Made by a program: the position numbers and the translations under genes | Shown: positions 12,624-30,923 of the stretch, piece by piece | How positions within the stretch are numbered: position 1 is the first letter of the stretch | Layout of the letters: the number at the start of each line of letters is the position of its first letter | The notes under the pieces: generated by a model | Databases searched by the model: none | Seen by the model: only the letters and a program-made list of their open reading frames with translations | Told to the model about the DNA's origin: nothing | From: Microbacteriaceae bacterium | GTDB lineage: Bacteria; Actinomycetota; Actinomycetes; Actinomycetales; Microbacteriaceae | Direction: 5' to 3' | Length of the DNA: 38,153 nucleotides | Assembly: GCA_947448845.1 (NCBI GenBank) | Contig: CANFOX010000002.1 | Span: 1-38,153, forward strand

Positions 12624-12994
12624 CCGAATCGTTCTATGAGCAAGTTGGCGGCGAACCGGTTTTTCGCCAGCTTGTTGCCGCCTTTTACCGGGAAATCGCA
12701 ACCGACGAACTGCTACGGCCAATGTACCCAGCCGAAGATCTTGCCGGCGCAGAAGACCGCCTGCGCATGTTCTTAGAGCAATACTGGGGCGGGCCAAAAA
12801 CTTACCAAGAACAGCGTGGGCACCCCAGGCTTCGCATGCGCCACAACGAGTTCAAAATTGACCCTGCGGCCCGCGACCGGTGGCTTTTTCACATGCGAAA
12901 CGCAGTTAACCAACTGAACCTGCCGCCGCTTTACGAAGCGGAACTTTGGGCATACCTAGATCGGGCGGCCCACTCGCTACTCAACAGCCTCTAG
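12620..12994 (+). CDS. glbO: Group II truncated haemoglobin (trHbO)
   Basis: A 124-residue globin with the 2-over-2 fold. FYEQVGGEPVFRQLVAAFYREI, the segment AGAEDRLRMFLEQYWGGPKTYQEQRGHPRLRMRH and the end AAHSLLNS match M. tuberculosis GlbO almost word for word. The proximal haem histidine is the one in LRMRH, and the tyrosine of QYWGGP is in place. trHbO proteins bind O2 and have been linked to peroxide and NO handling. The start is GTG overlapping the mscS stop (GTGA). The TAG stop overlaps the stop of the convergent unknown gene by 4 nt (CTAG). Confidence 0.96.
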   Translation: MTESFYEQVGGEPVFRQLVAAFYREIATDELLRPMYPAEDLAGAEDRLRMFLEQYWGGPKTYQEQRGHPRLRMRHNEFKIDPAARDRWLFHMRNAVNQLNLPPLYEAELWAYLDRAAHSLLNSL

Positions 12995-13650
12995 TAGGTG
13001 TTCGATTGCCTTGCTAAAACGTGGCCGTGATTGCTACTGAGGCGAACCCACCCGTCACTGTGGTAAACCTCTACTTCTTCGTCAACCGTCAAAAACCCCA
13101 ATCCGGCAGCTGCAAACGCGGCCCCGGCAGGCAAATTAGTCTTTAGGTCAACCGAACGCCCCCATATTGAACCTCGAATTCGAGAGGCTATCGGGCCACC
13201 CACCGAAGGCGGAATCGACTCAGCCACTTCGGCAATGCCCCGTCGAGCGATGTCGGTAAGGTCTCGCTCGGCAAGCGTTCCAACCAGGTGCCAACCGCTT
13301 CTTGGCGGAGTAACGCCTGCCCAGGCAACGTGCTGGTGTTCCGGAAGGCTTACAACCAAGCTTTCGAAAACCCCCGCCAAACCAGCCTCAAGCTGCACAA
13401 TAATTCCATCGATGGTGACCACGGCATCCACTTCAAAGTCGGCCTCAAGTGGCATGGTTCTCATGCCAATAATGGTCGGGCTCGAATCGTTCAGACCGGT
13501 TGCGAAAACTGGCGCAACATAGGCTGCCAAAACGTTTCCATAGGCGCGCAACTTTACAAAACCGTTTTGATCCATGCGTTTAGCGCGCTGCAAAAAGTTG
13601 AGCAAATCTCTTGCGGTTGATTCGTCTGCGATGGTGAATTGATTCTTCAT
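12991..13650 (-). CDS. Conserved-looking hypothetical protein, no family recognised
   Basis: A 219-residue protein that I do not recognise. It has no signal peptide, no clear membrane helix and no known catalytic motif. The N-terminal third is helical and basic (STARDLLNFLQRAKRMDQNG), and the middle looks beta-rich with alternating hydrophobics (EADFEVDAVVTIDGIIVQLEAG, GWHLVGTLAERDL). A glycine/alanine-rich segment, LPAGAAFAAAGLGFLTVDEEVEVY, precedes a tail with GWVRLSSNHGHVLARQ. Codon use resembles its neighbours, so it appears native. It is divergent from tesB across a 24-bp gap, and its stop overlaps that of glbO. The start ATG has no obvious Shine-Dalgarno. Confidence 0.75.
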   Translation of the reverse strand: MKNQFTIADESTARDLLNFLQRAKRMDQNGFVKLRAYGNVLAAYVAPVFATGLNDSSPTIIGMRTMPLEADFEVDAVVTIDGIIVQLEAGLAGVFESLVVSLPEHQHVAWAGVTPPRSGWHLVGTLAERDLTDIARRGIAEVAESIPPSVGGPIASRIRGSIWGRSVDLKTNLPAGAAFAAAGLGFLTVDEEVEVYHSDGWVRLSSNHGHVLARQSNTY

Positions 13651-17541: not shown

Positions 17542-18546
17542 ATGAGCTATCAAGCGGCGGAAACTCGCTATGACCAAATGAAATATCGACGAACTGGGCA
17601 AAGTGGGCTCTTGCTTCCAGAACTTTCACTTGGGCTTTGGCATAGCTTTGGTGATAGCGATTCGTCGCGAACTCAGCGAAAATTACTTCGGCGCGCCTTT
17701 GATTTGGGTATAACCCACTTTGATTTGGCTAACAATTATGGCCCACCCTATGGCTCGGCAGAAGAAAACTTTGGTGATCTTTTTGCCGCTGACTTCACTA
17801 AGCATCGCGACGAACTAGTCGTCTCAACTAAAGCCGGTTATGACATGTGGCCTGGGCCTTACGGGGAATGGGGTTCTCGCAAATACCTTCTGTCTTCGCT
17901 AGACCAGAGCCTCAAGCGCATGCGATTGCCATATGTTGACATCTTTTATTCGCACCGATTCGACCCAAATACCCCGCTTGAAGAAACCATGGGCGCCTTA
18001 GCAAGCGCGGTGCAACAAGGTAAAGCCCTCTACGTTGGAGTATCGAGCTACAACAGCGAACAAACCGAACGCGCCAAGGCTATTTTGGCTGAACACAATG
18101 TTCCGCTATTGATTCACCAACCTCGCTACAACATGTTTGATCGCAATGCCGAAAACGGTCTTCTGACGACTTTGGCTACCGAGGGCATTGGCTGTATTGC
18201 CTTTTCGCCGCTGGCACAGGGGCTTTTGACAGATAAGTACCTTGGCGGCAAAGTTCCTAAAAACTCTCGGGCAGCGCGCAAAAAATATCTACAGCCAGAG
18301 AGCATCAACGAGGTCTACTTGCAGAGAGTTCAGGCGTTAAACGAAATCGCCGCCCAGAGGGGGCAATCTCTGGCTCAATTGGCAGTCTCGTGGATTCTGC
18401 GGCAGCCAACAATAACCTCTGTTCTCATTGGAGCCAGCTCGGCAAGTCAACTTGAAGATAATTACAAAGCCTTGAGTGCCAGCAAGTTCACCCAAACTGA
18501 AATTGAACTTATTGACCAATTTGCAGTTCACGGAACGGCATTCTGA
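17542..18546 (+). CDS. Aldo/keto reductase, YghZ/GPR (AKR14) type
   Basis: A 334-residue NADPH-dependent reductase. The sequence follows E. coli YghZ closely, e.g. LSLGLWHSFGD, THFDLANNYGPPYGSAEENFG, STKAGYDMWPGPYGEWGSRKYLL and FYSHRFDPNTPLEETMGAL. The tetrad is Asp61, Tyr66, Lys97 and His138. YghZ reduces L-glyceraldehyde 3-phosphate and methylglyoxal, so aldehyde detoxification is likely; the true substrate is unproven. It is the first gene of a seven-gene overlapping operon that includes agmatine/putrescine enzymes, where aldehyde reduction could be useful. The ATG has TAGGCT 6 nt upstream, so the operon probably begins with a leaderless message. The next start codon follows the stop without gap. 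Confidence 0.92.
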   Translation: MSYQAAETRYDQMKYRRTGQSGLLLPELSLGLWHSFGDSDSSRTQRKLLRRAFDLGITHFDLANNYGPPYGSAEENFGDLFAADFTKHRDELVVSTKAGYDMWPGPYGEWGSRKYLLSSLDQSLKRMRLPYVDIFYSHRFDPNTPLEETMGALASAVQQGKALYVGVSSYNSEQTERAKAILAEHNVPLLIHQPRYNMFDRNAENGLLTTLATEGIGCIAFSPLAQGLLTDKYLGGKVPKNSRAARKKYLQPESINEVYLQRVQALNEIAAQRGQSLAQLAVSWILRQPTITSVLIGASSASQLEDNYKALSASKFTQTEIELIDQFAVHGTAF

Positions 18547-19485
18547 TTGCGCTTTAGGGGTGCTCCATTCGGTGTGTTTTTTGCACTTGCCGCAGCAATG
18601 TTCTTCGGGTTAAATGCCAGCACATCCAAAATTATTGTTGCTGCCGGAATATCGACAGGTTCGTTAGTTCTTTTTAGGTCTCTTGCCTGCACCCTGCTGG
18701 TTGGCGTTTCACTTGTTCTTACTAAGCCGCAGAGGTTTCGTCTGAGCAAATCTGAAATACCGAAGCTCTTACTGTTTGGGGTGTTTGGCGTGGCCCTAAT
18801 GCAGTGGGCCTACAGTAATGCGGTTTCAAAACTTCCCGTTGGAATAGCCCTTCTAGTTGAATACACCGCGGTTATTTGGGTTCCTTTAGCCTCGAAACTT
18901 TTCTGGAATGAGCGAACCAAACCGCGCCTCTGGGTTGGGGTGGCACTGGTGATCGCCGGTCTTGTTGCCATAAGCCAGATTTGGAACGGCGGGCTAGACG
19001 CCGCCGGGCTTGGCTTTGCTGCCCTTGCGGCGGTGTTATTAAGCGTCTTTTTCTTAATGGGAGAACGCATGCAGCACAACAGAGATTCACTCTCAACCAT
19101 GTTCTACTCGATGTTGGTGTCGAGTGTCTTTTGGTTTTGCCTTTCGCCCTGGTGGCAGTTCGATTCCGGCCGGTTGACGCAACCCGTTAGCCTCGGCGGA
19201 AATCTGGCAGCAGCCACTGTTCCATTTTGGGTTTTGTTGATTTGGGTTGGGGTGGCAGGTTCTTTTATTCCAATGCTGCTGTCATACGCCTCACTGTCAC
19301 TTCTTAGCGCCACCGGAGTCGGCATTGCGTCAACCGCTGAAGTTGTGTTTGCGGCATTATTTGGTTGGATTTGGTTAGGTGAAAAACTAAGTGAACCGCA
19401 ACTTCTTGGCGGCGGTTTGCTGATTGCGGGAATAGTCGTTGCTCAAACTTCAAGACTGAAAAAGGAAGATTATGCCAACATTTGA
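18547..19485 (+). CDS. EamA/DMT-family transporter
   Basis: A 312-residue inner-membrane protein with about ten membrane helices arranged as two EamA repeats (about 10-140 and 150-305). Family marks include VFFALAAAMFFGLNASTSKII, the helix end VALLVEYTAVIWVPLASKLFWNERTKPRLWVGVALVIAGLV and the second-half copy TAEVVFAALFGWIWLGEKLSEPQLLGGGLLIAGIVV. Members export or import metabolites such as amino acids and polyamines. Here the operon context suggests arginine, agmatine or putrescine, which is only an inference. The start is TTG directly after the reductase stop, and the 3' end overlaps the thioredoxin gene by 14 bp. Confidence 0.9.
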   Translation: MRFRGAPFGVFFALAAAMFFGLNASTSKIIVAAGISTGSLVLFRSLACTLLVGVSLVLTKPQRFRLSKSEIPKLLLFGVFGVALMQWAYSNAVSKLPVGIALLVEYTAVIWVPLASKLFWNERTKPRLWVGVALVIAGLVAISQIWNGGLDAAGLGFAALAAVLLSVFFLMGERMQHNRDSLSTMFYSMLVSSVFWFCLSPWWQFDSGRLTQPVSLGGNLAAATVPFWVLLIWVGVAGSFIPMLLSYASLSLLSATGVGIASTAEVVFAALFGWIWLGEKLSEPQLLGGGLLIAGIVVAQTSRLKKEDYANI

Positions 19486-19852
19486 ACTCGGGCTCGAAAA
19501 GTTTGAAGAGACCGTGCTTTCCGACGGAATCACGCTGATTGACTTTTGGGCGGAATGGTGCGGGCCGTGTCGCATGTTTGGTCCAATCTTTGAAGAAGCC
19601 TCAGATGCAAACCCTGATATTCGTTTTGCCAAAGTAGACACCGAAGCCGAGCAACAGCTCTCTGGCGAATTAGGCATCAGCTCGATTCCCACCCTTATGA
19701 TTTTTCGGGATGGTGTGCTGCTCTTCAGCGAAGCTGGCGCACTGCCAAAAGATGCACTCAACGACATAGTTAGCCAAGTGCGAGCATTAGATATGGTCGA
19801 GATCAAAAAGCAAATAGCCGAGGCCGATAAAACGGGTGAAGCACAGAAATGA
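19472..19852 (+). CDS. trxA: Thioredoxin
   Basis: A 126-residue cytoplasmic thioredoxin. The active site WCGPC has Cys30 and Cys33, preceded by LIDFWAEW. The cis-proline is in SIPTLMIF, as expected. A basic/acidic tail of about 15 residues (VEIKKQIAEADKTGEAQK) extends past the usual end. A good ribosome site (AAGGAAG) precedes the ATG, which lies inside the end of the eamA gene. The stop overlaps the decarboxylase start (ATGA). It may serve MsrA (17519) and the glutathione peroxidase-like enzyme (23697), both of which normally use thioredoxin. Whether it is the main cellular TrxA is unknown. Confidence 0.92.
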   Translation: MPTFELGLEKFEETVLSDGITLIDFWAEWCGPCRMFGPIFEEASDANPDIRFAKVDTEAEQQLSGELGISSIPTLMIFRDGVLLFSEAGALPKDALNDIVSQVRALDMVEIKKQIAEADKTGEAQK

Positions 19853-21213
19853 TTTTTGATTCGGCGTCATCGGAATCACTTCAAGAACGAATTTTTGCTT
19901 ATTCGCGCGACCGCATTGCAATGAGCCCACCGCCGCTAGATAACCCTAAGAGTCTGAGGTGGCTTCAAGAAAATGTTCCTCCAACCATCACGGCCCAGGG
20001 TCTTGGCGGGGAAAAAGCGCTTACGTTATTTGAAAACGTGCTCGCCCAGGCTTGCATTTCAACAGATCACCCAGGTTACGTCTCGTTCATTCCGACAGCA
20101 CCAACCGATGCATCAACCCTGTTTGACCTCGTGGTTTCAGCAAGTTCGATCTATGGTGGCTCATGGCTCGAAGGCGCCGGTGCAGTTTATGCAGAGAATC
20201 AAGTACTCGCTTGGTTGGCAAAAGAAGTAGGGCTTCCTGAAACTGCCGGCGGGGTTTTTGTGCAAGGTGGCAGCCTTGGCAATCTCTCGGCCTTGGTTAC
20301 GGCAAGACACCAGGCACAGCAAAAACTAATCGCCGCAGGCTTCCCTTCACCTTCGCGTTGGCGCATTATTTGCAGCGAGGAGGCCCACTCTTCACTGGCC
20401 GCCGCAGCCAGAGTGATGGACATCGACCTGGTAAAAGCCAAGGTTGACGAAACAGGCAGACTGCGTGGGCCAGCTGTCTCTCAAGCGCTAAGCGAAACCG
20501 AGAAAAATTCAGTTTTTGCAATTGTTGCAACGGCAGGTACTACAAACTTTGGAATCGTAGACAACCTGGATGAAGTCGGGCAGATTGCCAACGAAGCTGG
20601 AATTTGGTTTCACATCGATGGCGCTTACGGCCTTGCTGGAATCTTGGCGGCATCCAGTTCTCACCTGTTTGTTGGAAGTCACCGCGCCGATTCGTTCATA
20701 GTTGACCCGCACAAGTGGCTTTTTGCGCCTTTCGATGCTTGCGCTTTGGTTTACCGAAACCCAGACCTGGCACGCGTGGCCCATGCCCAGCACGGTGAAT
20801 ATCTAGACACTCTTACCGATTCCGGTGATTTCAACCCGAGCGATTACGCCTTCAACCTAACCAGGCGAGTAAGGGGTCTACCACTTTGGTTCTCACTGGC
20901 TACTCACGGTGTTGATAAATACCGACAGGCGGTCGAACAAAACATTCAGGTGGTTCGGCAAATCGCCGAAGTGATTCGCCGTGACCCACACCTTGAACTT
21001 GTTCGCGAACCAGAACTCTCGGTTGTGGTTTTCAAAAAACGAGGATGGCAGCTAGCCGACTACGAAGCCTGGTCGAAAAAACTGCTGGAGCGAGGTCAGG
21101 CATTTGTTGTGCCCAGTTCACACCGCGGTGAAGTAAACACCCGGTTTGCAGTGGTGAACCCGGAAACCACACTCGAACTTCTAAAAGAAGTCGTTGAAAG
21201 CATGCACGAATGA
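19849..21213 (+). CDS. PLP-dependent group II decarboxylase, substrate unknown
   Basis: A 454-residue fold-I PLP enzyme of the aromatic-amino-acid/DABA/glutamate decarboxylase group. The PLP lysine is Lys289 in VDPHKWLF. Asp257 and Ala259 in HIDGAYG and the ring-stacking His180 in SEEAHSS are in the expected places. ATAGTTNFGIVDNLDEVG is also typical. Substrate cannot be read from these motifs. The gene overlaps trx upstream and the N-carbamoylputrescine amidase downstream by ATGA, so it is translated with agmatine-to-putrescine enzymes. This suggests arginine as substrate, although known arginine decarboxylases belong to other families. Tyrosine, tryptophan, glutamate or diaminobutyrate remain alternatives. 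Confidence 0.88.
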   Translation: MIFDSASSESLQERIFAYSRDRIAMSPPPLDNPKSLRWLQENVPPTITAQGLGGEKALTLFENVLAQACISTDHPGYVSFIPTAPTDASTLFDLVVSASSIYGGSWLEGAGAVYAENQVLAWLAKEVGLPETAGGVFVQGGSLGNLSALVTARHQAQQKLIAAGFPSPSRWRIICSEEAHSSLAAAARVMDIDLVKAKVDETGRLRGPAVSQALSETEKNSVFAIVATAGTTNFGIVDNLDEVGQIANEAGIWFHIDGAYGLAGILAASSSHLFVGSHRADSFIVDPHKWLFAPFDACALVYRNPDLARVAHAQHGEYLDTLTDSGDFNPSDYAFNLTRRVRGLPLWFSLATHGVDKYRQAVEQNIQVVRQIAEVIRRDPHLELVREPELSVVVFKKRGWQLADYEAWSKKLLERGQAFVVPSSHRGEVNTRFAVVNPETTLELLKEVVESMHE

Positions 21214-22211
21214 AAATCACCGTTGCCAAAGCCCCAGAATCACTGTCAAGGGTTTACCCAGCAACCAGAAAGCCAATTCGAGTAGCACTTGTGCAAACAC
21301 GTTGGCATTCAGATGCGGCCGAGCACGAAGCTGTTCTGACCAGTGGCATTGAGGCCGCCGCCGCCGAAGGTGCCACGATTGTGTTTTTGCCAGAACTTAC
21401 CCTGAGCCGCTACATGGCAGACACCGAACCAACCAACACGCCAAACCTGCTGGCAGAAGCATTGCAGGGCGGCGCTACGCACCAATTCGCCGCCAAGGTT
21501 GCCGCCAAATGTAACATTTTTGTGCATGCATCGCTATACGAGATTCAAGACCGCGAGGATGGCCGCGGGCTGAATGTGGCAATAATTGTGGCGCCATCCG
21601 GTGAAATCATTGCTCGAACACCCAAGTTGCACATACCGGTTACCGCCGGCTACTACGAAGATCGTTACTTTGCGGCGGGGCCGGCAACTGGAAACCCATA
21701 CCCGGTTTACGAGCTCGAACTCGGGGGAAACAAAGCCCGATTTGGTCTACCAACCTGCTGGGATGAATGGTTTGCCGAAACCACCAGAAGCTATTCGCTA
21801 CGCGGTGCCGAGGTGCTGGTTTACCCAACCGCCATTGGCTCGGAACCAGATCACCCAAACTTTGACACCGAGCCCCTCTGGCGCCAAGTGATTATTGGAA
21901 ACGCAATAGCCAACGGCACTTTCATGGTGGTGCCAAACCGCTATGGCAATGAAGGCAATATCGAGTTTTACGGAAGCAGTTTCATCGCTGACCCATACGG
22001 GCGCGTTCTGGCTCGAGCCGGTCGAAGCGGTGACGAAGTTCTCGTTGCAGACCTTGACCTCGACCAGAGGCGAGATTGGCTCGACCTGTTTCCGTTTTTG
22101 GCTACCAGAAGGCCTGACACCTATGGTTCTTTAGTAGAAGTGGTTCGAAACCCGCGCCGCGCCGATGGCCAAGGTGAACTCGGTGGCATTGCCGGGGTCG
22201 ACTTCAGTTGA
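21210..22211 (+). CDS. aguB: N-carbamoylputrescine amidase
   Basis: A 333-residue nitrilase-superfamily hydrolase that splits N-carbamoylputrescine to putrescine, CO2 and ammonia. The catalytic triad is Glu62 (FLPELTLS), Lys139 (TPKLHIP) and Cys183 (PTCWDEWF). The AguB-specific stretches TAGYYEDRYFAAG, CWDEWFAE and YPTAIGSEP are present. An extra N-terminal segment of about 22 residues precedes the usual start IRVALVQT. It may therefore be the natural N-terminus or the start may be slightly later, but the ATGA overlap with the decarboxylase favours this one. It is followed by agmatine deiminase with a TTGA overlap, which makes the pathway assignment strong. Confidence 0.93.
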   Translation: MKITVAKAPESLSRVYPATRKPIRVALVQTRWHSDAAEHEAVLTSGIEAAAAEGATIVFLPELTLSRYMADTEPTNTPNLLAEALQGGATHQFAAKVAAKCNIFVHASLYEIQDREDGRGLNVAIIVAPSGEIIARTPKLHIPVTAGYYEDRYFAAGPATGNPYPVYELELGGNKARFGLPTCWDEWFAETTRSYSLRGAEVLVYPTAIGSEPDHPNFDTEPLWRQVIIGNAIANGTFMVVPNRYGNEGNIEFYGSSFIADPYGRVLARAGRSGDEVLVADLDLDQRRDWLDLFPFLATRRPDTYGSLVEVVRNPRRADGQGELGGIAGVDFS

Positions 22212-23218
22212 GCTGGAGAATGCCCGCCGAATGGCAGCCACACGAATGCACCTGGATGGCTTGGCCTTCGGCAGGCTACACCCTAGGTGAAACCGAAGCA
22301 GACCATGAAACTGCTCGTAAAACCTGGGCAAACGTTGCCAATGCCATTGTTCGGTTTGAGCCGGTGAACATGCTGGTAAACCCCGAAGACGAAACCTTGG
22401 CGGCTAGCTTTCTAAGCCCGGCAGTGAAACTTCATTTGGTTGAACTTGATGATGCCTGGATGCGAGACATTGGGCCAACTTTCGTAACCAACGATTCGGG
22501 TGACGTGGCTGCTGTTGACTGGGTTTTCAACGGATGGGGCCAGCAGCCTTGGGCTAGATGGCAGCGTGACTCGAAGGTTGGCGAGGTGGTTGCGAATCTT
22601 TCTGGCAGGTCACGAATTGCCAGCAGCCTTGTGAACGAGGGCGGCGGAATTCACGTGAATGGTGCTGGAACCATTCTGCTAACCGAAACCGTGCAGCTCG
22701 GCGAGGGTCGTAACCCAAACCTCTCGAAATCAGAAGTTGAAAACGAGCTACGAGCGAAACTTGGAGTGCAAAGAGTCATTTGGGTCAAACGTGGTCTGAC
22801 GCGCGATTATGACGAATTCGGCACCAGGGGTCACATCGACATCGTGGCCTGTTTTGCTGACGAAAACACTATTTTGTATCACGATCAGCAAGATGAACGG
22901 CATCCAGATTTCGCGGTTTCTCAAGAAGTGAAAGCCACTCTAACTGCTGCCGGAACCTTCAAGGTGATTGGCATTCCAGCGCCGAAAAAGCTGCAGGATT
23001 CACACGGACCGGTGGATTACTCTTACATAAATCACTATGTATGCAACGGCGCGGTGATCTTGTGCTCGTTCGACGACGACAACGATGCTGTCGCCAAGAA
23101 AATCTTAGAAAGCACCTACCCTGGTCGTGAAGTTGTCTTGGTTGACTCAACCGCCCTCTTTGAACGCGGGGGCGGAATTCACTGCATCACTCAACAGCAA
23201 CCGAAAGGCAAAAAATGA
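22208..23218 (+). CDS. aguA: Agmatine deiminase
   Basis: A 336-residue enzyme of the guanidine-modifying (peptidyl-arginine deiminase-like) fold converting agmatine to N-carbamoylputrescine and ammonia. The start RMPAEWQPHECTWMAWPS, the DDAWMRDIGPTFV segment, EGGGIHVNGAGTILLTE and the C-terminal RGGGIHCITQQQP with catalytic Cys326 are diagnostic. The TTG at 22208 overlaps the aguB stop (TTGA) and matches the usual N-terminus of actinobacterial members. The ATG four codons later is an alternative, but GGAG is only 1 nt from it. It ends in an ATGA overlap with the next gene. Confidence 0.94.
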   Translation: MSWRMPAEWQPHECTWMAWPSAGYTLGETEADHETARKTWANVANAIVRFEPVNMLVNPEDETLAASFLSPAVKLHLVELDDAWMRDIGPTFVTNDSGDVAAVDWVFNGWGQQPWARWQRDSKVGEVVANLSGRSRIASSLVNEGGGIHVNGAGTILLTETVQLGEGRNPNLSKSEVENELRAKLGVQRVIWVKRGLTRDYDEFGTRGHIDIVACFADENTILYHDQQDERHPDFAVSQEVKATLTAAGTFKVIGIPAPKKLQDSHGPVDYSYINHYVCNGAVILCSFDDDNDAVAKKILESTYPGREVVLVDSTALFERGGGIHCITQQQPKGKK

Positions 23219-23700
23219 GTATCGATAAAGACATCGAGATTGTGAAGCAGCAAGAAGCCGAACTGATTTTCGAGAAGTTCAATGAAACTGCGGCGGTCGA
23301 ACTGGGTAACGTTGCGATTGAACGTGCAGCAAAAGCAAATCAACCGGTAACAGTTGTGGTTCGACTAGGTGGTTCGCCAGTGTTCGTTCAAGCCATGCCC
23401 GGAACGGCCCCGGCAAATTTCTACTGGGCGAATCGAAAAGCAAACCTGGTTGAGCTCTACGGTCAGAGTTCTTACCAACTTGGATTGAATTCAAAAAAGT
23501 CGGGCGATGACCTCGTGGCGGTTGCTGGTCTAAATGCTAACGACTACAGCGCACACGGTGGCTGCTTTCCCATTCGAGTTCAAAACGTCGGGCTCATCGG
23601 CAGCATTACCGTTTCTGGGTTGCCGCAGCGCGAAGACCACATTTTAGTTTCGAACGCCATCGCAACATATCTGAAAGTGAAAATCGCTCAACTCGACTAG
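23215..23700 (+). CDS. UPF0303 / haem-degrading-domain (HbpS/GlcG-like) protein
   Basis: A 161-residue cytoplasmic protein of the UPF0303 family, related to the DUF336 fold of HbpS and GlcG and to yeast Ybr137w. The signature LGNVAIERAAKANQPVTVVVRLGGSPVFVQAMPGTAPANFYWANRKANLVELYGQSSYQLG and the later SAHGGCFPIRVQNVGLIGSITVSGLPQREDHILV fit the family well. Biochemical roles are not settled; haem or small-molecule binding has been suggested for relatives. It is the last gene of the agmatine operon (ATGA overlap with aguA). Its stop codon overlaps the convergent gpx stop by 4 nt. Confidence 0.88.
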   Translation: MSIDKDIEIVKQQEAELIFEKFNETAAVELGNVAIERAAKANQPVTVVVRLGGSPVFVQAMPGTAPANFYWANRKANLVELYGQSSYQLGLNSKKSGDDLVAVAGLNANDYSAHGGCFPIRVQNVGLIGSITVSGLPQREDHILVSNAIATYLKVKIAQLD

Positions 23701-28185: not shown

Positions 28186-29175
28186 TTGAGAGTACTTGTA
28201 ACCGGCGGCTTGGGTTTCATTGGCTCAAACTTTGTGCGTCTCACCCTAAACACCAGACCGGATTGCCAAATTACTGTGTTGGACGCCGAAACTTACGCTG
28301 GTCGCCGAAGCAACCTGGCTGACTTGGATGGCAAATACGATCTCGTGATTGGTGACATTCGCGATCAGAGCCTGGTTGATTCACTTGTTGCCAACGCAGA
28401 CCTGGTGGTGCACTTTGCCGCCGAAAGCCATAACGACAATTCCCTAGTTTCACCAGAAAACTTCGTAACCACCAACATAAACGGCACCTTCAATTTGATT
28501 CAAGCTGCCGTCAAGCACGATGTTCGGTTTCACCACATTTCAACCGACGAAGTTTTTGGCGACTTGGCCTTGAATGACCCGGCAAAGTTCACCGAGCTAA
28601 CCGCCTATCGCCCTTCGAGCCCCTATTCTGCAAGCAAAGCCGCCAGCGACCATTTAGTGCGGGCCTGGGTTCGCTCGTTTAAACTTCGCGCCACCATCAC
28701 CAATTGCTCGAACAACTTTGGCCCTTACCAACATGAAGAAAAGTTGATTCCCCGCACGATTTTGCTGGCGGCAGCCGGCGTGAAACCCAAGGTTTACGGT
28801 GTTGGGCAAAACGTTCGAGACTGGATACACGTTGATGACCACAACCGAGGCGTTTGGGCAGCTATTGACCGAGGTCAAATTGGTGAAACCTACCTGCTTG
28901 GCGCCAATAATGAGCGCAACAACCTCGAGGTTGTCAGAGCCATCTTAAAAACCCTGAACCTTCGTGAAGATTTCTTTGAATTGGTTACAGATCGACCAGG
29001 CCACGACCTTCGATATGCAATCGATGCCACAAGGGCTCGCCTCGAGCTGAACTGGGCACCGAAAGAAAATAATTTCGAAAATCAGTTAGCTGGGGTTGTT
29101 GATTTTTATTTGACTAAAGCCGGTCAACTCGATGTCAACGAATCTGCGGGCTCATCAAGCCACCTCAACTTATGA
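28186..29175 (+). CDS. rmlB: dTDP-glucose 4,6-dehydratase
   Basis: A 329-residue extended SDR enzyme converting dTDP-glucose to dTDP-4-keto-6-deoxyglucose with bound NAD. The dinucleotide motif GGLGFIGSN is at 7-15. The catalytic residues Thr120-Asp121-Glu122 (HISTDEVFGD) and Tyr147-x3-Lys151 (YSASK) are present, as is NNFGPYQHEEKLIPR. The start TTG at 28186 follows AGAGGG at 28177-28182; the 3-5 nt spacing is short, so expression may be modest. The stop overlaps the start of the large membrane protein (ATGA). It supplies the substrate of WecE. Confidence 0.94.
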   Translation: MRVLVTGGLGFIGSNFVRLTLNTRPDCQITVLDAETYAGRRSNLADLDGKYDLVIGDIRDQSLVDSLVANADLVVHFAAESHNDNSLVSPENFVTTNINGTFNLIQAAVKHDVRFHHISTDEVFGDLALNDPAKFTELTAYRPSSPYSASKAASDHLVRAWVRSFKLRATITNCSNNFGPYQHEEKLIPRTILLAAAGVKPKVYGVGQNVRDWIHVDDHNRGVWAAIDRGQIGETYLLGANNERNNLEVVRAILKTLNLREDFFELVTDRPGHDLRYAIDATRARLELNWAPKENNFENQLAGVVDFYLTKAGQLDVNESAGSSSHLNL

Positions 29176-30923
29176 CCGAAAAAACAGGGCACCAAATTGC
29201 CTGGATCTCGGGTGCGGTTGCATTCATTTTTCTAATGACCCAATCGGCGCTGCAAGTTGGTAAAGAGTTTGGCGTAGCGCAGATTTTCGGTAGTTGTTTG
29301 GCTTACCTTGGCATATTCGCGGTTCTGGCGGTCATTAGCGGTGTGAGAATTCGGTTTTCTAGACCAAAGCAAATTTCGGCTTTATTGCAGCTGGTTACTG
29401 GGCTGTCGATGGCTTATCTAGTGGTTTATCGACTTTCCTTTGAGCATCCGTTTTTGCGCTACTACCAACCAAATGCCCTGAAGAACCTCGATGTCGGAAT
29501 TGCCTTTCACCAAGACACCGCATTTCACAGTGCTTTGATTCAAAGTATTTTGAATTTCGGCTACCCAAGCACTGGCCAACATGGCGCACCTATTACTTTT
29601 TACTATGTGCTCAGCCACTACCTAGACGCATTTGTTTGTTGGGTTACCGGTTTAGCTCCTTATCAAAGCGCAGCGCTATTTTTTGAATTCAAGAAAATGC
29701 TATTGGTGTTGGCGGTTGCAGTTTTTGTGGCTCTTGCAACTAAGAACAAAACTGGTGTTTTTCGCCTGGTAGCTTTCGCAATCGTTTTGCCAGTTGTTAT
29801 TGGCTCTTGGTCGGCAATTGGTTCTGAAGGACTCTGGTCGGCCTCGATTTTGCTACTGCTGAGCGCACCGAAACTTGTGAAAACCGTTCTGCTGCAAAAA
29901 CTTACAAGCAGGCACTTAGCCTTCCTAAGTTCAATGGTTGCCCTGGTTTCGCTAGCAAAACTATCGTCGGGAATTATGCTCGCCGCCGTTTTGGCCGCTT
30001 TTCTCATTCAACGGCACTTCAAAAATTTGAGAATCTGGATTACCGCGGCCGCTTTAGTTGTCTTTTTTGGCACGGCAGCGTTCCTGTTTGCCGCTTCGAA
30101 TCCGACCACTGTGGTTCGAGGTTTCAGCGCCATAGATTCAATCAACTTCTTGTTTTTTGTAACCAAAGAGCAATCTGTTGAATACTTGGCTGCCATTTAC
30201 CTGCTTGTTGCAGTTATCGGCTTATTCGCACTGCTGACTCGATCACGCCCGATCTTGCAACTTCTAACTGCCGGTTTTACCGGGGTTTTGATTCTTGGCG
30301 CACTGGCTTCGCACTTCAACAAAAGCGATCAGTATTACTTCAGTCTTGGGCTTCTCCACGCGCTTCTGGTTATAGCTTTGCCGCTACTTCTCGAGCCTTT
30401 GAAGCCTAGGTTCAAACCGCAGGCGCTTGGCAGTTGGGCTTTGGTTTCGGCGCTCGTGGCCAGCAGTGTTTTCATGCCACTGGCCGCAACTCACATCTTT
30501 GGGCAAACCAAGGAACAGATTGAATCGAACACTCTTCGCAAATTCAACGTGCGGGCAACATCCTTGGCTGTCTTTGAAGAAGCCCTTACCGAATACATGG
30601 CAAAAAACCAGTTGAACAAAAAAGATTCACTTCTGTTTGTTCCGAAATGGATGTTCAAAAACCGCAAAATGCAGTTCAAAGGGCAAACCTGGGCACACGG
30701 ATTACTGCTTTATGCGGTAACCGGCGTGCCGCTTTGGCATGGGTCGCCCGAATTGCATGCTGGTTACGGATTTGGCGCCTACAAAGCATCTGACCTTTGG
30801 GTGAACAACGACCAAGTTGGCATAGCGACCCAATGTTCATTGGGTAAAAATGTGATTCGAGTTTTAAGTTTCAATCACGCCGCACTCAAACTTGAATGTT
30901 CCCCAAAGCACCAAGTTAGGTAA
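29172..30923 (+). CDS. Large polytopic membrane protein, probable GT-C-type glycosyltransferase
   Basis: A 583-residue protein with about 11-13 predicted membrane helices and a C-terminal soluble region of about 130 residues. It carries no motif that I can assign with certainty. The first large loop, LRYYQPNALKNLDVGIAFHQDTAFHSALIQSILNFGYPSTGQHGAPITFYYVLSHYLDAF, contains acidic and histidine residues placed as in GT-C enzymes that take sugars from polyprenyl phosphate on the outer face. The gene overlaps rmlB by ATGA and is the last of the sugar cluster. That context suggests it is the GtrC-like partner of the GtrA/GtrB proteins. The acceptor (wall polymer or protein) is unknown. Confidence 0.75.
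   Translation: MTEKTGHQIAWISGAVAFIFLMTQSALQVGKEFGVAQIFGSCLAYLGIFAVLAVISGVRIRFSRPKQISALLQLVTGLSMAYLVVYRLSFEHPFLRYYQPNALKNLDVGIAFHQDTAFHSALIQSILNFGYPSTGQHGAPITFYYVLSHYLDAFVCWVTGLAPYQSAALFFEFKKMLLVLAVAVFVALATKNKTGVFRLVAFAIVLPVVIGSWSAIGSEGLWSASILLLLSAPKLVKTVLLQKLTSRHLAFLSSMVALVSLAKLSSGIMLAAVLAAFLIQRHFKNLRIWITAAALVVFFGTAAFLFAASNPTTVVRGFSAIDSINFLFFVTKEQSVEYLAAIYLLVAVIGLFALLTRSRPILQLLTAGFTGVLILGALASHFNKSDQYYFSLGLLHALLVIALPLLLEPLKPRFKPQALGSWALVSALVASSVFMPLAATHIFGQTKEQIESNTLRKFNVRATSLAVFEEALTEYMAKNQLNKKDSLLFVPKWMFKNRKMQFKGQTWAHGLLLYAVTGVPLWHGSPELHAGYGFGAYKASDLWVNNDQVGIATQCSLGKNVIRVLSFNHAALKLECSPKHQVR

What the first reader, a model, noticed from the sequence alone, without database searches (positions are those of the whole stretch)
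19849..23218. Candidate complete arginine-to-putrescine operon using an unexpected decarboxylase family
Seen: a group II PLP decarboxylase, AguB and AguA are joined by 4-nt start/stop overlaps, with an EamA transporter and thioredoxin upstream. Known: AguA and AguB convert agmatine to putrescine; known arginine decarboxylases are of the SpeA (alanine-racemase fold), AdiA or pyruvoyl types, not the AADC/DABA group. Inference: this decarboxylase may make agmatine from arginine, which would be a new arginine decarboxylase family, or else the cell imports agmatine and the decarboxylase acts on another amino acid.
Basis: partly seen in the sequence, partly recalled or inferred. Interest (0 to 1): 0.72.

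Follow-up and report, generated by a model that had tools for sequence, protein, structure and literature searches.

The report
Probable new arginine decarboxylase family
A small-genome actinobacterium carries an operon in which an enzyme related to dopa and lysine decarboxylases probably does the job of arginine decarboxylase, feeding two known enzymes that turn its product agmatine into putrescine; this would be a separate evolutionary invention of that activity, still to be proved by assay.

Summary
In detail: a group II (PF00282) PLP decarboxylase, an AguB-like and an AguA-like gene run with 4-nt overlaps at 19849-23218. Comparative evidence favours an arginine decarboxylase. In 150 genomes of the family, 36 of 36 carriers (≥56% identity) have AguA, against 41 of 114 others (p=2e-13; genera 24 of 24 against 24 of 61). 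The gene lies within 3 kb of aguA in 18 of 36, in 11 genera and several arrangements. In the wider order 31 of 38 carriers have AguA; 5 of the 7 without it have an agmatinase class found in none of the 31. The own genome (83% complete) has no AR-fold SpeA, SpeD-type enzyme or spermidine synthase match, but holds one short OKR-type decarboxylase of unknown role, a real caveat; 25 of 36 carriers lack that family. An acid, E108, is invariant in 66 of 66 sequences and absent from a related clade (13 of 13), though present in two further homologues. Outside the family no carrier has the gene near aguA. Activity was not tested; PF01862 (PvlArgDC) was not searched in genomes. Verdict: probable new arginine decarboxylase family, parallel to DesA-type lysine decarboxylases; confidence 0.75.

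The parts
19849..21213 (+). Group II (AADC/DABA/DesA-like) PLP decarboxylase, candidate L-arginine decarboxylase; K289 in DPHKW, H180, D257, clade acid E108
   Evidence: PF00282 188 bits; 36 of 36 family carriers have AguA; E108 in 66 of 66 sequences
21210..22211 (+). AguB-like N-carbamoylputrescine amidohydrolase (CN_hydrolase; CWDEWF and YPTAIGSEP segments)
   Evidence: PF00795 145 bits; TIGR03381 199 bits, below cut-off 410
22208..23218 (+). AguA-like agmatine deiminase (PAD_porph; GGGIHCITQQQP segment), TTG start
   Evidence: PF04371 348 bits; TIGR03380 275 bits, below cut-off 382
23215..23700 (+). HbpS-like heme-degrading-domain protein, last gene of the overlapping run; link to the pathway unknown
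   Evidence: PF03928 107 bits; overlap ATGA; homologue in 4 of 49 decarboxylase loci
19472..19852 (+). Thioredoxin, overlapping the decarboxylase start by 4 nt; shared with near relatives only
   Evidence: TIGR01068 105 bits over cut-off; overlap ATGA; 4 of 49 loci
18547..19485 (+). EamA-type transporter; shared upstream with genus g13 only, substrate unknown
   Evidence: PF00892 119 bits; 2 of 49 loci
17542..18546 (+). Aldo/keto reductase, first gene of the collinear run; probably unrelated
   Evidence: PF00248 251 bits

Best explanation
The 454-aa enzyme is an L-arginine decarboxylase that arose inside the group II PLP decarboxylases (the branch with aromatic amino acid, diaminobutyrate and DesA lysine decarboxylases). 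It makes agmatine; AguA deiminates agmatine to N-carbamoylputrescine; AguB hydrolyses that to putrescine, CO2 and ammonia. Shown: gene order, overlaps, families, co-occurrence, linkage, replacement pattern, conserved residues. Inferred: the substrate, the role of E108 in holding the guanidinium group, and the use of putrescine as such or in catabolism, since no PF01564 or PF02675 match was found in the genome.
For: 36 of 36 family carriers have AguA against 41 of 114 others, p=1.9e-13; by genus 24 of 24 against 24 of 61, p=3.6e-8. Within 3 kb of aguA in 18 of 36 carriers and 11 genera, 0.12 expected, in varied arrangements: decarboxylase-AguB-AguA, decarboxylase-AguA, decarboxylase-AguA-amidase, and TetR-decarboxylase divergent from AguA-amidase. 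In the order 31 of 38 carriers have AguA against 28 of 160 others, p=1.2e-13; outside the own family 23 of 30 against 24 of 154, p=1e-10. 5 of the 7 order carriers without AguA have one agmatinase class (TIGR01230 over cut-off) found in 0 of the 31 with AguA. In the same genus G092 (99% complete) lacks decarboxylase, AguA and AguB together. 19 of the 36 family carriers have no PF01276 match over cut-off, no second PF02784 gene and no PF02675 gene (hand count). E108 is invariant in 66 of 66 carrier sequences and absent in 13 of 13 of a related clade (SH-aLRT 95).
Against: No activity was measured. The own genome has one OKR_DC_1 decarboxylase (G000:C45), and that family is itself associated with AguA (25 of 77 against 5 of 73, p=6e-5). 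Two order carriers, G187 (73% complete) and G225, have neither AguA nor that agmatinase class. The agmatinase class is also in 9 of 160 non-carriers, and the five carriers with it come from two genera with 91-95% identical proteins, so perhaps two events. 0 of the 23 carriers with AguA outside the own family have the two genes within 3 kb (hand count). E108 also occurs in two more distant homologues, G196a and G024b, which form a separate clade. AguA and AguB are below curated cut-offs, and only 9 of 36 carriers have an AguB orthologue. Tallies are not corrected by a species tree. PF01862 was not searched in genomes.
Confidence: 0.75

Rival explanations
1. The decarboxylase acts on another basic amino acid (ornithine, lysine or diaminobutyrate), as DesA and DABA decarboxylases do, and the cell takes up agmatine for AguA and AguB.
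For: The nearest named families include DABA and desferrioxamine-pathway decarboxylases. 41 of 77 AguA-bearing family genomes lack the decarboxylase, so AguA can have another agmatine source. An EamA transporter lies upstream here and in genus g13.
Against: It gives no reason why 36 of 36 family carriers have AguA, nor why most order carriers without AguA have an agmatinase instead. Four DesA-like paralogues of the same family have Q, not E, at position 108.
Confidence: 0.13
2. The short OKR_DC_1 protein elsewhere in the genome is the true arginine decarboxylase; the operon enzyme has an accessory role.
For: It is intact (484 aa, SAHK lysine site), belongs to the fold of B. subtilis SpeA, is associated with AguA across the family, and lies about 1 and 4 kb from aguA in the two genomes of genus g13.
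Against: 25 of 36 carriers lack PF01276 over cut-off. G092 has it but no AguA, AguB or PF00491 match. It lies near aguA in 2 of 25 genomes that have both, one genus (hand count; some contigs are short). PMC8503589 (passages read) calls actinobacterial homologues probably not polyamine-related.
Confidence: 0.08
3. The enzyme decarboxylates an arginine relative (citrulline, homoarginine, canavanine or a modified arginine) and AguA/AguB act on that product.
For: AguA and AguB score below their NCBIfam cut-offs, so a shifted substrate is possible.
Against: A TIGR01230 agmatinase is found instead of AguA in some carriers; citrulline decarboxylation would make AguA unnecessary.
Confidence: 0.04

Closest known systems
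DesA/DfoJ-type lysine decarboxylase (group II, siderophore pathways; PDB 5o5c, deposited as a putative desferrioxamine-pathway decarboxylase)
   Same: Same PF00282 branch; PMC8503589 (section 2) describes a lysine decarboxylase origin in the glutamate/DOPA decarboxylase branch (that this is DesA is recalled)
   Different: 142 bits only; Q in place of E108; linked to AguA/AguB, not to siderophore genes
L-2,4-diaminobutyrate decarboxylase (NF052646)
   Same: Best NCBIfam match
   Different: 165 bits against cut-off 900; no DABA transaminase among the neighbouring genes scanned
PDB 4obu (recalled as a Ruminococcus gnavus tryptophan decarboxylase)
   Same: Best solved-structure match, 178 bits
   Different: Leu 126 of the chain aligns with E108 (counted by hand)
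SpeA (AR fold), AdiA / B. subtilis SpeA (OKR_DC_1), PvlArgDC and SpeD-derived arginine decarboxylases
   Same: The same proposed reaction; SpeD-derived ones were also found by their AguA/AguB or SpeB partners (PMC10407285, passages)
   Different: Other sequence families; the operon enzyme matches none of PF02784, PF01276, PF01862 or PF02675

Membership tests
Group II PLP decarboxylases (PF00282) | Whole-domain match above Pfam gathering score | tested here: met
   188 bits against 27, residues 61-396
Group II PLP decarboxylases (PF00282) | PLP lysine in an HK motif, stacking His, Asp to the pyridine N (roles recalled) | tested here: met
   K289, H288, H180, D257 invariant
L-2,4-diaminobutyrate decarboxylase (NF052646) | Curated score cut-off | tested here: not met
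   165 against 900 bits
Known arginine decarboxylase families (AR-fold SpeA, OKR_DC_1, PvlArgDC, SpeD-derived) | Match of the operon enzyme to PF02784, PF01276, PF01862 or PF02675 | tested here: not met
   Only PF00282, PF01212 and PF00266 matched at E up to 0.001
Arginine decarboxylase (function) | Converts L-arginine to agmatine | not testable with these tools
   Needs enzyme assay
Arginine decarboxylase (function) | Co-occurs with an agmatine-using enzyme | tested here: met
   36 of 36 family carriers with AguA; 36 of 38 order carriers with AguA or the agmatinase class
AguA, agmatine deiminase (TIGR03380) | Equivalog cut-off 381.8 | tested here: not met
   275 bits; PF04371 at 348 bits is met
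AguB, N-carbamoylputrescine amidase (TIGR03381) | Equivalog cut-off 410.25 | tested here: not met
   199 bits; next family 82 bits

The most novel reading that the evidence does not exclude
The E108 clade is a new family of arginine decarboxylases, a second origin of this activity inside the AAT-fold PLP decarboxylases, spread through several families of one actinobacterial order; agmatine is then handled by interchangeable modules (AguA+AguB, AguA+an amidase-signature enzyme that may replace AguB, or an agmatinase).
Probability: 0.72. Interest if true: 0.68.

Novelty: new variant of a known kind. Interest (0 to 1): 0.6.

Why it matters
Arginine decarboxylase is a textbook case of one reaction invented several times; PMC8503589 (section 2) counts at least four folds and, for the glutamate/DOPA decarboxylase branch, mentions lysine decarboxylase only. 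A group II arginine decarboxylase would add an independent invention, explain how actinobacteria without SpeA could make agmatine, and give a function to a widespread gene that passes no curated functional model here. It is directly testable with one purified protein.

Tried and rejected
EamA as agmatine or arginine importer: found upstream in 2 of 49 decarboxylase loci, both genus g13; too narrow to use. DABA decarboxylase identity: rejected on score. AR-fold SpeA in the own genome: the single PF02784 gene is LysA (TIGR01048 425 bits, cut-off 298); in the other 35 carriers the PF02784 genes were counted, not identified (25 have one, 1 has none, 9 have two to four). SpeD-derived arginine decarboxylase: PF02675 in 0 of 72 genomes. 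Spermidine as end product: no PF01564 match in G000, G010 or G092; 18 of 150 genomes have one, best 45 bits, 10 over cut-off. OKR_DC_1 as the arginine decarboxylase: not excluded, kept as rival. Plasmid homologues in Streptomyces clavuligerus and Embleya: the gene table is empty there, and I saw no agu gene by eye in the ORF list, which was not searched. The halophile paper PMC5178350 (passages) shows no group II arginine decarboxylase. Literature searches showed no report of a group II arginine decarboxylase in what was listed (one search listed 12 of 476 papers, 10 of 11); the library holds open-licence papers only. One search found nothing relevant.
Full report
Observation. The overlapping run also takes in thioredoxin (19472-19852) and an HbpS-like gene (23215-23700); an aldo/keto reductase and an EamA transporter lie directly upstream on the same strand. 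Pfam and NCBIfam give a PF00282 decarboxylase, an AguB-like CN_hydrolase and an AguA-like PAD_porph protein. AguA and AguB fall below the NCBIfam cut-offs, although they hit agmatine deiminase and N-carbamoylputrescine amidase models best; the decarboxylase reaches no curated model.

Genome. The window is contig C2 of a 1.26 Mb assembly, 83% complete. The best named relatives by this protein are MAGs labelled Micrococcales bacterium, Microbacteriaceae bacterium and Rhodoluna sp. (9 loci).

Co-occurrence. In 150 genomes of the family, 46 have a match at E up to 1e-40; I took the 36 with at least 56% identity, because identities drop from there to 51%. AguA (PF04371) is in 77 of 150. 36 of 36 carriers have AguA, against 41 of the other 114 (p=1.9e-13); by genus 24 of 24 against 24 of 61 (p=3.6e-8). 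The 10 genomes with weaker matches were counted as non-carriers; 5 of them have AguA. In the window's own genus G010 has decarboxylase, AguB and AguA in a row, while G092 has none of the three. These tests are not corrected by a species tree.

Linkage. Decarboxylase and aguA lie within 3 kb in 18 of 36 carriers, in 11 genera (hand count); 0.12 would be expected by chance placement. The arrangement varies: decarboxylase-AguB-AguA (own, G010, G013, G095, G027; one gene inserted in G046 and G117), decarboxylase-AguA (G083, G059, G038, G067 and others), decarboxylase-AguA-amidase with 4-nt overlaps (G093, L067), TetR-decarboxylase divergent from AguA-amidase (G118, L069; G243, L131), and divergent neighbours (G062). 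Outside the own family the picture differs: 0 of 23 carriers with AguA have the two genes within 3 kb (hand count). An AguB orthologue (E up to 1e-60) is in only 9 of the 36 family carriers; the amidase (NF005127, 963 bits, cut-off 575) may take its place in some. EamA occurs upstream in 2 of 49 decarboxylase loci (genus g13, followed by thioredoxin, about 2 kb before the decarboxylase), thioredoxin in 4 of 49, HbpS-like in 4 of 49: features of near relatives, not of the family.

Wider survey. In 198 genomes of the order, 51 match at E up to 1e-70; 38 have at least 52% identity. AguA is in 31 of these 38 and in 28 of the other 160 (p=1.2e-13); outside the own family 23 of 30 against 24 of 154 (p=1e-10). 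The 7 carriers without AguA are G153, G171, G187, G166, G254, G309 and G225. A PF00491 protein that passes the TIGR01230 agmatinase cut-off (186 against 174 bits; it does not pass NF002564, 219 against 302) and is at least 74% identical to that of G166 is in 5 of these 7, in 0 of the 31 with AguA, and in 9 of the 160 non-carriers. The five come from two genera and are 91-95% identical, so they may be two events. Another PF00491 class that passes both agmatinase cut-offs (L145) is common in AguA-bearing genomes too, so not every agmatinase-like gene is informative. On a quick tree the carriers with the agmatinase sit inside the AguA-bearing clade (short search, several long branches).

Other arginine decarboxylases. 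Own genome: one PF02784 gene, which is LysA; no PF02675 match (0 of 72 genomes); no PF01564 match; no PF00491 match; one PF01276 protein of 484 aa at C45, which matches the Ldc, AdiA and SpeF models far below their cut-offs. PF01276 over cut-off occurs in 11 of 36 carriers, 14 of 41 genomes with AguA but without the decarboxylase, and 5 of 73 without AguA. So OKR enzymes too go with AguA (p=6e-5) and may be the arginine decarboxylase in some non-carriers; they do not explain the 25 carriers that lack them, and G092 has one with no AguA, AguB or PF00491 match. 19 of the 36 carriers have no candidate from PF01276, from a second PF02784 gene or from PF02675 (hand count). PF01862 was not searched in genomes, and the own genome is incomplete.

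Residues. In 66 distinct carrier sequences (51% identity or more by BLAST), E108 in the loop GGSWLEGAG is invariant; the three outliers in the same alignment have T, G and S. In one search, 13 more distant sequences have A, S, T, N, C or G there; on a quick tree these 13 form one clade (SH-aLRT 95) and the ten carriers in it another (82). Of the 11 of the 13 whose AguA status is known, 3 (G082, G145, G196) have AguA. Four DesA-like paralogues have Q, one has S, and three have D beside a gap. Against a strict rule, G196a (47%) and G024b (41%) also have E and form a third clade. In the alignments the position corresponds to Leu 126 of the 4obu chain and a Gln of 5o5c (counted by hand). In AADC, Ile101 and Phe103 are described as active-site residues that contact carbidopa, Ile101 from the adjacent monomer (PMC8003434, passages); that this is the matching loop is my inference. 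E108 is therefore a candidate for binding the guanidinium group, but no model could be made: the folding queue was full in all seven attempts. The DPHK site is one that PMC12484125 (section 19) lists for tyrosine and some aromatic decarboxylases; that paper gives no motif for arginine. This neither helps nor excludes the arginine reading.

Literature. PMC8503589 (section 2 and passages) states at least four folds for arginine decarboxylase, an extra origin of lysine decarboxylase in the glutamate/DOPA branch, and mentions no arginine decarboxylase there; it also judges actinobacterial OKR homologues probably not polyamine-related. PMC10407285 (passages) shows the same logic, in which AguA/AguB or SpeB beside an odd decarboxylase led to SpeD-derived arginine decarboxylases that were then assayed. 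I saw no report of a group II arginine decarboxylase in the searches listed in Tried and rejected.

Judgement. Works as an arginine decarboxylase: probable (0.75). Member of a known arginine decarboxylase sequence family: no, tested. It is a new variant of a known kind.

Noticed in passing
L067:7856-9565 (G093); L131:2787-4496 (G243); L069 (G118): An amidase-signature protein (NF005127, 963 bits in L067) follows AguA, with 4-nt overlaps in L067 and L131. G093 and G118 have no AguB orthologue at E up to 1e-60 (G243 was not searched for it). It may be a non-homologous N-carbamoylputrescine amidohydrolase.
   Followed up: partly
L134, L135, L136 (genus g102) and L137, L138 (genus g89): The agmatinase in two different families is 91-95% identical, which suggests transfer between them.
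   Followed up: partly
G000:C45:4287-4988 (L077:763-2217): Short OKR_DC_1 decarboxylase of unknown substrate; in genus g13 its homologue lies about 1 and 4 kb from aguA.
   Followed up: partly
L061:6423-6896 and L064:6994-7476: A DUF3237 gene (L061 scanned; L064 by similarity) sits between decarboxylase and AguB in genus g46.
   Followed up: no
window 23215-23700: HbpS-like heme-degrading-domain gene overlaps aguA by 4 nt; homologues lie near the decarboxylase in 4 of 49 loci; link to the pathway unknown.
   Followed up: no
window 29172-30923 and 12991-13650: Reading frames of 583 and 219 aa with no Pfam match at E up to 0.001.
   Followed up: no
L152-L157, L147, L010, L011, L168-L171: A related clade of 13 decarboxylases (44-51% identity) without E108, in genomes mostly without AguA; its substrate is unknown.
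   Followed up: partly
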